A stretch of 55,794 nt of DNA from a virus. Under the pieces are notes generated by a model. It ran no database searches. It saw nothing but the letters and a program-made list of their open reading frames with translations, and was not told the DNA's origin. The stretch is from the IMG/VR virus record IMGVR_UViG_3300048919_000576, positions 1 to 55,794 of that record; one strand, given 5' to 3'. Position 1 is the first letter of the stretch. Every line of letters starts with the position of its first letter. Below are positions 3,730 through 17,380 of this stretch, piece by piece. The translations under genes were made by a program, and so were the position numbers.

Positions 3730-4407
3730 GTGGTTCTCAATCTTGTTAGAAAGGGTGAGAACGTGAATAGGCAAGTTTTAGAGGTATATCTAAGAGAGCT
3801 TGGGACTCAATCATTAATGGGCTTCTTGGCGATTAACGCTTTGAATAACTTAACTGCAATTCCGATAGAAAAAATACGACAATTTAGCCCCGATGACAGA
3901 GTCGCATTTAATGCTGAACACTTTCGATTAGTGCACAGCCTACTCACTCATTTGAGCAACATTTCAAGGATTATTTGGCCTCCAGCTTTATCTCCGAAGC
4001 AAAATTGTTTTTGCGGTAAGCCGAAGGCAAATGGACTGAAGTGCAGCACGTGCGTTGCCAGAGACAGGTCATCTAAGATGCATATCGCTCTACAGCTCGG
4101 AGATCAAAACCATGTCTTAAAAAGCCGTACGCTGCGCGATCATCTTGAGCATTTCGATGAACGAATAGATTATTGGGTTCAGACGAGCGAGCGGATGAAT
4201 TATGTACAAGACTTTATAGGACCCAAAGGTGCAATTGCTGGTGTAGATGATTCAGACATGATGCGCCAATACGACCCAGCGATTGCTGAGTTCACATTCA
4301 GAGGGGAGACGTACAGGTTGTCCGATCTTAGTGCGGGGCTAAAGGATATCCAAGATAGAGCGGCGTCAGCGCTTTCAAACTCGAAAGAAATCGCAGCGAG
4401 ATTCTAG
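3730..4407 (+). CDS. Hypothetical accessory protein with a zinc-knuckle-like motif
   Basis: The frame is open from 3703. No ATG is available; GTG at 3730 or GTG at 3763 (with GGTGAG just upstream) are the plausible starts. The product has CFCGKPKANGLKCSTC, a CxC-x8-CxxC pattern that could bind zinc, followed by HIALQLGDQNHVLKSRTLRDHLEHFDERID. It is AT-rich and plus-strand between two minus-strand genes, which marks it as a moron. A His-rich helix after the knuckle is notable. Function unknown. Confidence 0.65.
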   Translation: MVLNLVRKGENVNRQVLEVYLRELGTQSLMGFLAINALNNLTAIPIEKIRQFSPDDRVAFNAEHFRLVHSLLTHLSNISRIIWPPALSPKQNCFCGKPKANGLKCSTCVARDRSSKMHIALQLGDQNHVLKSRTLRDHLEHFDERIDYWVQTSERMNYVQDFIGPKGAIAGVDDSDMMRQYDPAIAEFTFRGETYRLSDLSAGLKDIQDRAASALSNSKEIAARF

Positions 4408-4429
4408 GGTCCGCTGAGGTAGATGCGCT

Positions 4430-5026
4430 TCATGCGGCCACCTTCGGCGTGTAGGTCAGCGTGCCGTCCAGGATCGCTTCCTTGATGGCATTGAATTCCC
4501 ATGCGTAATACTGCGACTCAACGAATATCCGCATGCCGTCGCGGTAGTCGTGCTTCTTGCGCTTGATGAATGCTTCGGCCGCGGCGTGGGTGAAGTGGGC
4601 GTTAACGTATTCCCAGCGATCGTCCCAGCCGGTGACGGTGTGGTCTTCCAGTTCGCCAAGCACGTACCACTGGTCAGACTCGTCGGCCTTCATGAACTGA
4701 CACTCGGACCAAGTCTGCATTTTTTTATTGAGCTGGCTTTTCTCGTAGCTGGACAGGCCGTCCCAGTACTCCTTGACCGAGTAAGCAACCGACTCACCGC
4801 TATCCCAGTACACCAGGCGCTTGTCGGTGTAGTCCATGTCCAGCCCGGCGACGATGCGGCGCGCCTCAACAATGAAGACGGCGTCTGCGGTGCAATGATC
4901 GTGGACCCGCTTGCCTTTGCAGTCATAGCGCAGACGTTGGACAAAGTCGGCCCAAGTCGCGGCGTCGAGGTGGTGACCGGTTGCCAGGCTCGGCGCCGGC
5001 TCAGCGATCTTGTTTTCTGTGGGCAT
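4430..5026 (-). CDS. Hypothetical phage protein, 198 residues
   Basis: MPTENKIAEPAPS is taken as the start because AGGA lies about 7 nt upstream; the frame extends further but without support. The N-terminal part has a cysteine/histidine group (YDCKGKRVHDHCTADAVF). The C-terminal third is rich in aromatic and charged residues (IKRKKHDYRDGMRIFVESQYYAWEFNAIKEAI), as in several Pseudomonas phage proteins of unknown role. No catalytic motif recognised. Confidence 0.7.
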   Translation of the reverse strand: MPTENKIAEPAPSLATGHHLDAATWADFVQRLRYDCKGKRVHDHCTADAVFIVEARRIVAGLDMDYTDKRLVYWDSGESVAYSVKEYWDGLSSYEKSQLNKKMQTWSECQFMKADESDQWYVLGELEDHTVTGWDDRWEYVNAHFTHAAAEAFIKRKKHDYRDGMRIFVESQYYAWEFNAIKEAILDGTLTYTPKVAA

Positions 5027-14472: not shown

Positions 14473-14769
14473 ATGGCAAAAAAACAAAATCAACCTGAGA
14501 GAGCAGCTATGTCAGGTCTGGAGCGGCTATCGCTCAGGGTGTCGTCGATGATCAATCACCCAGTCGCGCAGATTCAGCGATGGGTGACGATCCATCGGCT
14601 GGACACGGACGGTGAAAGGGAGTGGAAGGAGGTTATGGGGCTGCTGTCCGAGACGGAGTGTATAGACATGACGTTCAACGACGACGAATCAGTGACGCTC
14701 AGGTGGGACGCGCCTTCTGAAACAGAGCCATTCGTCGTCGGTATGGAAGAGGAAGCCGCAATAGGCTGA
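14473..14769 (+). CDS. DUF1654-family protein
   Basis: The segment SGLERLSLRVSSMINHPVAQ with WVTIHRLDTDGEREWKEVMG is the signature of DUF1654, a small family almost confined to Pseudomonas and its phages. The 98-residue product is complete. Its biochemical role is unknown. The LexA box just upstream predicts induction by DNA damage, and the gene is transcribed away from PL into the immunity region. Confidence 0.85.
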   Translation: MAKKQNQPERAAMSGLERLSLRVSSMINHPVAQIQRWVTIHRLDTDGEREWKEVMGLLSETECIDMTFNDDESVTLRWDAPSETEPFVVGMEEEAAIG

Positions 14770-15041: not shown

Positions 15042-15212
15042 ATGTTGCAAATGACCGAAAAAATGAAGCGTGTAGTTGTCAGAGATCTGCGAGGCATGGG
15101 TATGGCGCCCGCTCGCCGAAGCTATTCGACGCATTCGAAGCTGGTCAATAATGCTTTTTTTATAGTGTTTGATCAGTATGAGAAAGCCTTTGAAGAGTTA
15201 GCTAAGGTTTAA
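15042..15212 (+). CDS. 56-residue basic protein upstream of Doc-like genes
   Basis: AAGGAG about 6 nt before the ATG fixes the start at MLQMTEKMKRVVVRDLRGMG. The protein is basic and helical and ends VFDQYEKAFEELAKV. It lies 10 nt before the Doc-like gene, the place where a Phd-type antitoxin would be, yet it does not match Phd in an obvious way. It may be an unrelated antitoxin or a small regulator. Confidence 0.65.
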   Translation: MLQMTEKMKRVVVRDLRGMGMAPARRSYSTHSKLVNNAFFIVFDQYEKAFEELAKV

Positions 15213-15222
15213 TGGTGAGTGT

Positions 15223-15702
15223 ATGGAGTTTGCGCGAATTAATTGGTTGAGTGAGGTTGATATAGCCGGCCTTAATCGCAGGCTAATTGAAGTTCAAACA
15301 CCCGCCGAGCCAATTGGAGTGTTAAATCATCCTGGACTGGCGTCCGCACAGCATCGTGCTATTCAATATCAGCATTACAGTAACGCTTGTGATGTTTATA
15401 AGTTGGGCGCGGTATTTGCTGAGGCAATTGTACAAAATCATCCATTTTTCAATGCTAACAAGAGAACTGCCGCAGCAGCGGTAATGGTGTTTTTATTGTT
15501 GAATGGAAAAAGACTTCAAGCTCCAATGGATCAGGTAGTTGATATGTTCGAAGGTTTAGCCAAGCATGCCTACGATATTGACGACTTTGAGTGCTGGTTG
15601 GTTCATTGGTGCGTCAAATTTGATGTGAGCAAGATTGATGATTTGGCTCAAGAAGTGTACAAAAAAAATAAATTGTTAAGGCAACATTTTTTAAAGAATT
15701 AG
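15223..15702 (+). CDS. Doc/Fic-fold protein 1
   Basis: HPFFNANKRTA (His73 to Arg81) is the Doc version of the Fic motif, H-x-F-x-N/D-x-N-K-R. Doc toxins phosphorylate elongation factor EF-Tu, using this loop. The 159-residue protein has the size of Doc plus a short C-terminal basic tail (VYKKNKLLRQHF). It is followed after 12 nt by a second member of the fold. The gene is AT-rich compared with flanking phage genes, suggesting acquisition. Maturation of toxicity needs an antitoxin that has not been proved. Confidence 0.88.
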   Translation: MEFARINWLSEVDIAGLNRRLIEVQTPAEPIGVLNHPGLASAQHRAIQYQHYSNACDVYKLGAVFAEAIVQNHPFFNANKRTAAAAVMVFLLLNGKRLQAPMDQVVDMFEGLAKHAYDIDDFECWLVHWCVKFDVSKIDDLAQEVYKKNKLLRQHFLKN

Positions 15703-15714
15703 TTGGGGAATGCA

Positions 15715-16443
15715 ATGGACAGGGAGTTAGTTGAGTCGATCCACCATCATTTGGTGGATCACTTTTCCGGTTCTGAGGATCCGCTAGAGCCTTCTGGGGT
15801 CAAAGATTACCATCTACTTGAATCGGCATGCGGGCGCCCATTCATGACCGCCAATGGTCGAGACTTATATGAGTCAGACTTTGAAAAAGGGGCGGTTATT
15901 TTTCACGGGATAATCTCAAATCATTGTTTTTACAACGGAAATAAGCGCACCGCCTTGCTAAGCGCTCTTTACTATTTGGGCGAAAACAACATCTGGGTTG
16001 ACGTCTGTGACGACGAAGAAATGTATGAGTTTACACGCAAGGTTGCAGCACATGAAATAACGGAGCGCCGCGAGGATGAAATAAAGGTCATCGTTGATTG
16101 GCTTGAAAGGAACTCGCGTCGGATTGTTAAATCAGATAAATATCTTTCTTATAATGCGCTTCGCGAAATTCTTGGCCGATTTGGATTCGAATTGGCGGAA
16201 ATAAATGGGCGCATTGAGGTTAGTAGAGATGGAGCGCATGTAGCTACCATTCTCAAGAAGGGCAAGCAAGGCAGAGAGGAGTATGATCCGGTTTATCTAG
16301 CGGAGCTTCGCAAGCGCCTCGGCTTAACTGTTGATCAGGGAATTGACTCGGGGCGATTCTATGGGGAGAAAGGGGTTTCGCCAGAGTTAAACGAGTACAT
16401 GCAAATTCGTGGAGAGGTTTTCCGTCGGCTAGCTTCAACTTAG
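15715..16443 (+). CDS. Doc/Fic-fold protein 2 with an extra C-terminal domain
   Basis: HCFYNGNKRTA (His70 to Arg78) is again the Doc-type active loop, in an N-terminal domain of about 135 residues. About 105 further residues follow; LSYNALREILGRFGFELAEI with NGRIEVSRDG recalls the small HicA/dsRBD-like fold of some toxins, but this is only a resemblance. ATG at 15715 (MDRELVES) is preferred over the upstream TTG because GGGG lies before it. It is AT-rich and co-oriented with the first Doc-like gene; a strong terminator follows. It might neutralise, assist or duplicate protein 1. Confidence 0.82.
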   Translation: MDRELVESIHHHLVDHFSGSEDPLEPSGVKDYHLLESACGRPFMTANGRDLYESDFEKGAVIFHGIISNHCFYNGNKRTALLSALYYLGENNIWVDVCDDEEMYEFTRKVAAHEITERREDEIKVIVDWLERNSRRIVKSDKYLSYNALREILGRFGFELAEINGRIEVSRDGAHVATILKKGKQGREEYDPVYLAELRKRLGLTVDQGIDSGRFYGEKGVSPELNEYMQIRGEVFRRLAST

Positions 16444-16450
16444 CTTAATA

Positions 16451-16492
16451 GCAGTCATGGCGCGAGATTCGCACCATGACTGCGCTTTTTTT
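16451..16492 (+). terminator. Terminator after the Doc-like operon
   Basis: A 10-bp perfect stem, GCAGTCATGG (16451-16460) with CCATGACTGC (16474-16483), is followed by GC and seven T. It closes the plus-strand operon and faces the 3' end of the convergent repressor gene. Confidence 0.9.
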
Positions 16493-16513: not shown

Positions 16514-17380
16514 CTACACTAAAATTGCATTCCACACTAGCAGCACTCTAGCTTGGATGAAGGTTTCGTCGGCTCGAATAATTTGGGGCGGGTGACGATC
16601 ATTGTCGGAAATCATCCTGATCTGTTCATCGCCCAGCCATTGCAGGCGCTTGATGTACAGGTGTCCTTCCCAAGAAAACATGTAGATCCCATCACCAACG
16701 AATTCCCGGATGCTGATGTCGACCAGCAGCGGGTCGCGATGTTTGATTGTCGGCGCCATTGACTGGCCCCAACCGGTCACCATCTTCAGGTGGAAATGCT
16801 CCTTGAACTCGACTCCCATCTCCCGCAGATGTTGAGGGCTGACCCGAACATCCTGCAGCATCTCGGGATAGTCGTGCGGGATCTGGCCGCCGCCCATTGC
16901 TGCACGGACGTCATAGTGCGCGATCCACACCTCATCACCAACAACGCCTGGCCGGTAGTAGTCAATCTCGATTGCGCCCCCGGCATCATCTGCTTCAGCT
17001 GCGGCCATCAATCTTTGCCTGGCAGTGTCAGTAAGTCCTTTTCCCTGCTTATCAAGCATCTGTCGGACCATATCAGCGGCTGAAAGCGTTGAAGACGATG
17101 GCGCTTCGGCGACACTTGTCAGCCCGCTGATCTCGCGCGCAAGTCGCTTACTGAAGCGCTCGACTGGAACGCCAAGTAAGCGCGATAGAACCGCCGCAAA
17201 CTTGGCGTTCAGTGGATTCGTTCCGTTCAGGTACATCGCCACCGCAGCGGCTGAGATATCAGCCTCTGCGGCAAGACTCGCCTGGGTCAATCCGAGGGCG
17301 TTCTTTTTCGATACGAAAAGCGCCTTCGCGGCGTCGCACTCAGCTTTCAGTTCTGGGGATAGCTCTTTCTTTTTGCTCAT
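16514..17380 (-). CDS. cI: CI-type prophage repressor
   Basis: Residues 24-75 form an HTH_XRE domain (LTQASLAAEADISAAAVAMY). The C-terminal S24 peptidase domain has the catalytic Ser in TGWGQSMAP (Ser207) and Lys in YIKRLQ (Lys244). RecA-stimulated self-cleavage is expected in the linker; the region VRAAMGGGQ lacks a plain Ala-Gly pair, which might affect induction. It would bind OL and OR as a dimer and repress PL and PR. 288 residues is somewhat long, with a linker of about 80 residues. The -10 of PRM ends only 8 bp before the ATG, so the transcript may be nearly leaderless, as in lambda. Confidence 0.94.
   Translation of the reverse strand: MSKKKELSPELKAECDAAKALFVSKKNALGLTQASLAAEADISAAAVAMYLNGTNPLNAKFAAVLSRLLGVPVERFSKRLAREISGLTSVAEAPSSSTLSAADMVRQMLDKQGKGLTDTARQRLMAAAEADDAGGAIEIDYYRPGVVGDEVWIAHYDVRAAMGGGQIPHDYPEMLQDVRVSPQHLREMGVEFKEHFHLKMVTGWGQSMAPTIKHRDPLLVDISIREFVGDGIYMFSWEGHLYIKRLQWLGDEQIRMISDNDRHPPQIIRADETFIQARVLLVWNAILV

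What the first reader, a model, noticed from the sequence alone, without database searches (positions are those of the whole stretch)
15042..16443. Tandem Doc/Fic-fold genes with an unrecognised small partner inside the immunity region
Both proteins keep the Doc active loop (HPFFNANKRT and HCFYNGNKRT). Two Doc homologues in a row are unusual, and the second has an additional C-terminal domain with a faint HicA-like look. The 56-residue basic protein upstream is in the antitoxin position but is not clearly Phd. This might be a new form of Doc system in which the second protein restrains or changes the first.
Basis: partly seen in the sequence, partly recalled or inferred. Interest (0 to 1): 0.68.

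Follow-up and report, generated by a model that had tools for sequence, protein, structure and literature searches.

The report
Doc antitoxin–toxin pair plus self-tailed Doc
A Pseudomonas prophage carries, next to its repressor, a growth-arresting Doc kinase with a small unrecognised antitoxin, followed by a second and different Doc enzyme whose far end looks like a built-in copy of the antitoxin's inhibiting segment, so that it may hold itself in check without a partner.

Summary
The three genes are real and form a tight operon (gaps 10 and 12 nt) between a DUF1654 gene and the convergent CI repressor. Both large proteins are Doc/Fic family (NCBIfam DOC_P1 above cut-off) with intact HxFx(N)(A/G)NKR loops.

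(1) The 56-aa protein is phrog_2208. No Pfam or NCBIfam Phd model hits it, but all 80 fetched viral relatives of Doc1 have such a gene directly upstream. Its last 22 residues match, in register, the Doc-binding tail of Phd, including the positions of the six experimentally mapped hot spots. It is very likely Doc1's antitoxin, with a Phd-C tail but no Phd DNA-binding domain.

(2) Doc2 (phrog_18015) is not a duplicate of Doc1. It belongs to a separate clade that mostly occurs alone, in prophages, filamentous phages and plasmids, with no antitoxin gene. AlphaFold2/Foldseek give Fic + HicA-fold (no conserved histidine) + C-terminal helix. In this window and several divergent relatives that helix matches the Doc-antitoxin tail; in others the match is weak.

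Best model: Doc2 is a Doc kinase neutralised in cis, with the HicA-fold domain as possible trigger sensor. The composite is a new variant of a known kind. Toxicity, docking and trigger are untested.

The parts
14473..14769 (+). DUF1654 protein, left neighbour of the cassette in every tandem copy
   Evidence: Pfam DUF1654 2.7e-24; present upstream in L001 and L013-L016 and in a cassette-free phage L155
15031..15036 (+). Shine-Dalgarno-like AAGGAG of the small gene
   Evidence: sequence, 5 nt before ATG 15042
15042..15212 (+). small basic protein (56 aa), phrog_2208: proposed trans antitoxin of Doc1
   Evidence: phrog_2208 3e-8; directly upstream of Doc1 in 80/80 viral loci and in L029-L032
15153..15203 (+). 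Phd-C-like Doc-neutralising tail of the small protein (AFFIVFDQYEKAFEELA, residues 38-54)
   Evidence: 13.7 bits against a profile of seven other Doc-antitoxin tails, 0/358 control C-termini, shuffle p 0.0002; six Phd hot-spot positions align
15223..15702 (+). Doc1 (159 aa), single-domain Doc-family protein
   Evidence: DOC_P1 1.2e-24, phrog_577 Doc-like toxin 4.3e-31
15439..15468 (+). Doc1 catalytic loop HPFFNANKRT
   Evidence: invariant H73 F75 N77 A78 N79 K80 R81 T82 in seven relatives
15715..16443 (+). Doc2 (242 aa): Fic/Doc domain, HicA-fold domain, C-terminal helix (phrog_18015)
   Evidence: phrog_18015 3.8e-64 over the full length; AlphaFold2 pLDDT 88, pTM 0.80
15922..15951 (+). Doc2 catalytic loop HCFYNGNKRT
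   Evidence: H70 N74 G75 N76 K77 R78 invariant in 14 Doc2-type proteins
16150..16329 (+). HicA-fold (alpha-beta-beta-beta-alpha) domain of Doc2, residues 146-205
   Evidence: DSSP of the model; Foldseek HicA hits 5yrz_B, 1whz, 6g26_F, 6hpb_C; no conserved His
16384..16434 (+). Phd-C-like tail of Doc2 (ELNEYMQIRGEVFRRLA, residues 224-240), proposed cis-acting neutralising helix
   Evidence: 12.7 bits, 0/358 control C-termini, top-scoring window of the whole protein
16451..16491 (+). stem-loop and T-run after Doc2: terminator-like structure between Doc2 and the convergent CI gene
   Evidence: -24.9 kcal/mol, z -5.5 against shuffles
16514..17380 (-). CI-like repressor (HTH + S24 peptidase), convergent right neighbour
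   Evidence: Pfam HTH_3 and Peptidase_S24, phrog_4 repressor

Best explanation
A lysogeny-region cargo cassette made of two independent Doc units. Unit 1: the small phrog_2208 protein is the antitoxin of Doc1. Its C-terminal helix docks on Doc1 as the Phd tail docks on Doc (fold complementation), while its basic N-terminal part replaces the Phd DNA-binding domain. Unit 2: Doc2 is a Doc-type kinase that carries an equivalent tail at its own C-terminus and is held inactive in cis. The HicA-fold domain between kinase and tail has no conserved catalytic His and would sense a trigger (RNA, or a phage or host protein) that frees the tail; the kinase would then arrest translation, probably through EF-Tu as P1 Doc does, protecting the lysogen against other phages or punishing prophage loss. 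Shown here: gene order and conservation, family membership, intact catalytic loops, fold of the extra domain (predicted), tail similarity. Inferred: binding, inhibition, kinase activity, target, trigger, anti-phage role.
For: Small protein: immediately upstream of Doc1 in 80/80 viral loci and in the Pseudomonas genome hits read; its tail scores 13.7 bits on a profile of seven other Doc-antitoxin tails with Phd, AbrB-like or other N-termini, better than all 358 control C-termini; it aligns without gaps to the Salmonella Phd 52-73 inhibitory peptide, hot spots F56/I59/M60/H63/L67/L70 = F39/V42/F43/Y46/F50/L53 (PMC9207808). Doc2: intact loop; separate clade from Doc1 (support 100/100); no consistent partner gene at the surveyed Doc2 loci; predicted helix 223-241 at the end; the tail is the best-scoring window of the whole protein in 11 of 18 Doc2-type proteins, spanning both deep branches of the clade; the tail helix is better defined with the Fic domain present (pLDDT 70-80) than without it (54). 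Precedent for modular Phd-C tails on unrelated antitoxin domains: PMC10440598.
Against: In seven Doc2 relatives the tail match is weak (-2.9 to +0.5 bits, ranks 2-10 of about 227 windows), and the F56 gatekeeper position is not hydrophobic in L027 and L152. With a profile from phrog_2208 alone the window's Doc2 tail is only marginal (p 0.03; 0.23 if the hydrophobic pattern is kept). The register was chosen by eye. No coordinates were available, so docking of the helix was not seen. Only about 18 Doc2 sequences were compared. The HicA assignment rests on Foldseek E 0.13; no sequence profile supports it. Toxicity is not shown.
Confidence: 0.55

Rival explanations
1. The small protein neutralises both Docs in trans: one antitoxin for two toxins, the Doc2 tail being only a structural helix of its fold.
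For: All three genes are in one apparent operon; the Doc2 tail match is weak in several relatives; no other antitoxin gene lies nearby.
Against: Doc2-type proteins mostly occur without any phrog_2208 gene, so they must be tolerated alone; the window's Doc2 tail scores as high as real antitoxin tails.
Confidence: 0.15
2. Doc2 is the restrainer: a catalytically weak Doc whose tail or HicA-fold domain inhibits or modifies Doc1.
For: Tandem order is conserved in three divergent lineages; in L048 a Doc1-type and a Doc2-type gene are again adjacent, convergently; Doc2 carries a tail that could in principle bind Doc1.
Against: The Doc2 loop is invariant; Doc1 plus small protein lives without Doc2 in 76/80 viral loci; Doc2 lives without Doc1 elsewhere.
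Confidence: 0.1
3. Doc2 is a constitutively tolerated Fic enzyme (kinase or NMP-transferase) of phage physiology, for example modifying a host protein during infection, and not a toxin.
For: Stand-alone moron-like gene in tailed and filamentous phages and plasmids; Fic folds serve several chemistries.
Against: Loop is of the Doc type HxFx(D/N)(A/G)NKR and not of the HPFx(D/E)GNGR type; nearest solved folds are P1 Doc structures.
Confidence: 0.15
4. Plain addiction module: the cassette only stabilises the prophage, like P1 phd-doc, with Doc2 a redundant second toxin.
For: Doc1 plus small protein has the standard antitoxin-first operon layout and sits in a prophage.
Against: An integrated prophage needs little post-segregational killing; Doc2 has no separate antitoxin, which addiction requires.
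Confidence: 0.2

Closest known systems
phd-doc of phage P1 and Salmonella (type II toxin-antitoxin)
   Same: Doc1 is a Doc-family protein; antitoxin gene lies first; antitoxin tail matches the Phd 52-73 neutralising segment, including hot-spot positions
   Different: No Phd/YefM DNA-binding domain in the small protein; a second Doc of another clade follows
tasAB (composite mazE-doc) and other Doc partners of Fico and Mahillon 2006 (PMC1626090)
   Same: Doc toxins paired with diverse non-Phd upstream antitoxins; they also report solitary Doc homologues of ordinary size. Their group 2 (five gamma-proteobacterial loci, one in P. aeruginosa) might be this small-protein family
   Different: No HicA-fold/tailed Doc and no tandem Docs in the section read; identity of group 2 with phrog_2208 not checked
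PanA Phd-C / Doc D6 (NetFlax, PMC10440598)
   Same: A Phd-C tail as a transferable neutralising element on a non-Phd protein
   Different: There the tail is on an antitoxin; in Doc2 it would be on the toxin itself
Class III Fic proteins with a C-terminal inhibitory helix (e.g. NmFic)
   Same: Inhibition in cis by a C-terminal helix of the same protein
   Different: Their helix carries (S/T)xxxE(G/N) (own knowledge); the Doc2 tail of the window lacks that motif and resembles Phd-C instead
CapRel-type and fused HicAB single-protein toxin-antitoxins (as discussed in PMC10865869)
   Same: Toxin, regulatory/sensor part and antitoxin element in one chain
   Different: Different toxin fold; that survey of 14 HicA contexts mentions no Fic or Doc

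Membership tests
Doc (death-on-curing) toxin family | Curated DOC_P1 model above cut-off | tested here: met
   Doc1 86.8 and Doc2 51.5 bits, cut-off 38.65
Doc (death-on-curing) toxin family | Catalytic loop HxFx(D/N)(A/G)NKR | tested here: met
   HPFFNANKR and HCFYNGNKR; conserved across relatives; motif definition from PMC13034048
Doc (death-on-curing) toxin family | Kinase activity on EF-Tu and growth arrest | not testable with these tools
   needs expression and an in vitro assay
Phd antitoxin family | Phd/YefM DNA-binding domain | tested here: not met
   No Pfam or NCBIfam match; the phrog_2208-type profile does not retrieve Phd chains from the PDB
Phd antitoxin family | C-terminal Doc-binding tail with the mapped hot spots | tested here: met
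   all six hot-spot positions hydrophobic/aromatic in the window protein, I59 replaced by Gly in many relatives
Phd antitoxin family | Gene immediately upstream of doc | tested here: met
   80/80 viral loci
HicA toxin | HicA alpha-beta-beta-beta-alpha fold | tested here: met
   Foldseek 5yrz_B prob 0.99 but E 0.13, plus 1whz, 6g26_F, 6hpb_C; predicted model only
HicA toxin | Conserved catalytic histidine | tested here: not met
   No His conserved in the domain across 17 proteins
HicA toxin | Pfam or NCBIfam HicA match | tested here: not met
Class III Fic | C-terminal (S/T)xxxE(G/N) inhibitory motif | tested here: not met
   absent in the window's Doc2 and in most relatives; occurrences in four of 17, at differing places
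Class III Fic | C-terminal helix of the same chain inhibits the active site | tested here: inconclusive
   C-terminal helix predicted; docking and inhibition not observable here

The most novel reading that the evidence does not exclude
Doc2 founds a class of single-chain Doc systems: the toxin carries its own Phd-C antitoxin tail, and an inserted non-catalytic HicA-fold domain is the sensor that releases it on phage infection, giving a one-gene abortive-infection device spread by tailed phages, filamentous phages and plasmids.
Probability: 0.35. Interest if true: 0.8.

Novelty: new variant of a known kind. Interest (0 to 1): 0.6.

Why it matters
If right, it shows that the Phd neutralising tail is a movable part used both in trans (small antitoxin without the Phd DNA-binding domain) and in cis (on the toxin). 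It would explain how a group of solitary Doc proteins, now auto-annotated as 'type II toxin-antitoxin death-on-curing family toxin' without an antitoxin, can be carried safely, and it gives a direct test: cut off 20 residues and look for toxicity. It also supplies a conserved antitoxin family (phrog_2208, 'unknown function') for a large set of prophage Docs.

Tried and rejected
Local duplication of one Doc: rejected, the two fall in separate clades. Frameshifted small gene: rejected, the N-terminal difference from relatives looks like ordinary divergence (relatives also vary there). The first alignment for it misplaced the small proteins. Profile of the small proteins against the PDB: no Phd hit. 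Nucleotide searches of phages and of E. coli genomes with the cassette or a relative: no match. Sigma-70 scan: no promoter found, fewer than chance expects. Tail test with a phrog_2208-only profile: marginal for the window's Doc2, reported as such. PADLOC matches (PDC-S23 etc.) cover only the Fic domain and were not taken as evidence of defence. Foldseek against viral models gave only Fic-domain or short HicA-like matches without names that helped.

Full report
What is there. The window is an IMG/VR virus record of 55,794 bases of Pseudomonas-prophage type: its repressor region is similar to Pseudomonas phages. On the + strand, between a DUF1654 gene (14473-14769) and the convergent CI-like repressor (16514-17380, minus), lie three genes with gaps of 10 and 12 nt: a 56-aa protein (15042-15212, with AAGGAG five bases before its ATG), Doc1 (159 aa, 15223-15702) and Doc2 (242 aa, 15715-16443), followed by a strong stem-loop with a T-run (z = -5.5) that separates them from the repressor gene. 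Both large proteins pass the curated DOC_P1 cut-off and Pfam Fic. The small one is known only as phrog_2208, unknown function.

The cassette is conserved. The same three genes in the same order, between the same two neighbours, occur in a P. putida genome (L001) and in other viral records (L013-L016); Doc2 is 75-85% and Doc1 66-71% identical to the window's, while synonymous sites are near saturation, so Doc1 and Doc2 are clearly under purifying selection and the small gene too at its C-terminal end. In a related phage without the cassette (L155) the interval between DUF1654 and CI is about 870 bases and holds other, unrelated ORFs: the place behaves as a cargo slot.

Unit 1: the small protein and Doc1. 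A profile search of viral contigs gave at least 134 Doc1 relatives, of which 80 were fetched. All 80 have a phrog_2208-type gene directly upstream (58 distinct upstream sets, so not 80 independent cases), and only four of these loci have Doc2 downstream (the three listed without it there are the Doc2 copies of L014-L016, whose ORF starts earlier). The phrog_2208 hits read in Pseudomonas genomes are likewise followed by a Doc1 gene, and so are those in Pseudomonas phages Sirocco and LPPA56. The protein has a variable basic N-terminal part (34 residues, net +6 in the window) and a conserved C-terminal 22 residues. No Phd/YefM domain is detectable.

The tail is Phd-like. The Salmonella Phd 52-73 peptide is sufficient to inhibit Doc, with hot spots F56, I59, M60, H63, L67 and L70, F56 and L70 being gatekeepers (PMC9207808). 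Laid without gaps from the C-terminus, the window's small protein has F39, V42, F43, Y46, F50 and L53 at these places. To test this, I built a profile from seven other Doc-antitoxin tails: P1 Phd (checked against the PDB), Salmonella Phd, and the proteins encoded directly upstream of Doc genes in Streptococcus, Monoglobales, Moorella, Enterococcus and Staphylococcus phages. Each of the seven is recovered by the other six above all 358 control C-termini. The small protein scores 13.7 bits, again above all controls (mean -12.8, maximum 3.5; shuffle p 0.0002). By sequence, these tails are shared across antitoxins with quite different N-termini, as reported for the Phd-C element of PanA (PMC10440598) and in line with the composite Doc systems of PMC1626090. 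I therefore read phrog_2208 as a Doc antitoxin that keeps the neutralising tail and lacks the Phd DNA-binding domain (confidence about 0.85).

Unit 2: Doc2. It is a full-length member of phrog_18015 and lies in a different clade from Doc1 (support 100/100), so the tandem joins two Doc families and is not a local duplication. Relatives stand mostly alone: in tailed-phage records, in a Halomonas genome, in Pseudomonas chromosomes (L027, L028), in filamentous phages of Vibrio and Salmonella, and in Klebsiella plasmids. No consistent upstream partner with an antitoxin-like tail is found in the surveyed loci. In one case, L048, a Doc2-type gene lies end to end with a Doc1-type gene that has its own phrog_2208-like gene: a second, differently oriented association. 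The catalytic loop is invariant in the aligned relatives apart from the Phe. E. faecalis Doc, which also has Asn at the D/N position of the loop (alignment), was assayed as a kinase (PMC13034048), so the Asn is compatible with activity.

Architecture of Doc2. AlphaFold2 (pLDDT 88, pTM 0.80) gives a Fic domain (1-132), an alpha-beta-beta-beta-alpha domain (146-202) and a last helix (223-241). Nearest solved folds for the whole are P1 Doc structures. Folded alone, the C-terminal region has HicA proteins among the leading Foldseek hits (5yrz_B prob 0.99, TM 0.73 by target; 1whz; 6g26_F; 6hpb_C), though the E-values are modest (0.13 and above) and no sequence profile confirms it. No histidine is conserved in the domain, so an RNase of HicA type is unlikely. 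The class III Fic inhibitory motif (S/T)xxxE(G/N) is absent from the window's protein and not shared by the family.

The last helix. Against the same antitoxin-tail profile, the Doc2 tail of the window scores 12.7 bits, above all 358 control C-termini, and is the best-scoring window of the whole protein. The latter also holds for L001, L013, L011, L043, L047, L048, L027, L028, L151 and L152, which include both deep branches of the clade; overall the tail is the top window in 11 of 18 proteins. In the other seven the score is weak (-2.9 to +0.5, rank 2-10 of about 227). Single-domain Docs do not end in this way (66 proteins, mean -13.1, maximum 1.0). A profile from phrog_2208 alone gave only marginal support for the window's own Doc2.

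Mechanism. The most economical reading is that Doc1 is neutralised in trans by the small protein and Doc2 in cis by its own tail, with the HicA-fold domain placed where a sensor would be. Single-chain toxin-antitoxins with a sensor part (CapRel) are a known anti-phage design, as discussed in the HicA survey PMC10865869, which lists 14 HicA contexts and mentions no Fic or Doc. The place beside the repressor suits expression in the lysogen and a role in excluding other phages. Kinase activity, binding, trigger and benefit are inferences.

Limits. A joint model of small protein and Doc1 could not be run. The tail register was set by eye, controls are ORFs from the same contigs (some may not be real genes), the Doc2 set is small, and the literature search covers open-access papers only.

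Noticed in passing
L048:2968-3780(+) and 3781-4447(-): A Doc2-type gene lies end to end (convergent, no gap) with a Doc1-type gene that has its own phrog_2208-like partner: an independent association of the two Doc families in another orientation.
   Followed up: partly
L154 (Salmonella 7.9 kb element), L142 (Vibrio), L045, L042: Doc2-type genes are carried by filamentous phages or records with filamentous-phage-like genes, with no antitoxin gene beside them.
   Followed up: partly
L027, L028, L152: A second Doc2-like subfamily, in Pseudomonas and another gammaproteobacterial genome, has a clearer HicA-like C-terminal domain by eye (GGSYVI...LDGMA..YLRRLGL) and a YRYMTALKRLAKT-type tail.
   Followed up: partly
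L144:516-680(+): A very short Moorella phage protein upstream of a Doc ends in IIERYRPALEELAK, another minimal Doc antitoxin candidate (annotated hypothetical protein).
   Followed up: partly
L044:3846-4628(-); L153: Solo Doc2 genes lie near possible defence genes: a gene downstream in L044 that looks like an FRG-domain protein (by eye, not tested), and a TIR-domain gene about 2.7 kb upstream on a Klebsiella plasmid.
   Followed up: no
window:13259-14050(-): Methyltransferase-like gene (Pfam N6_Mtase just above the cut-off, 21.6 against 20.4 bits) to the left of the DUF1654 gene.
   Followed up: no
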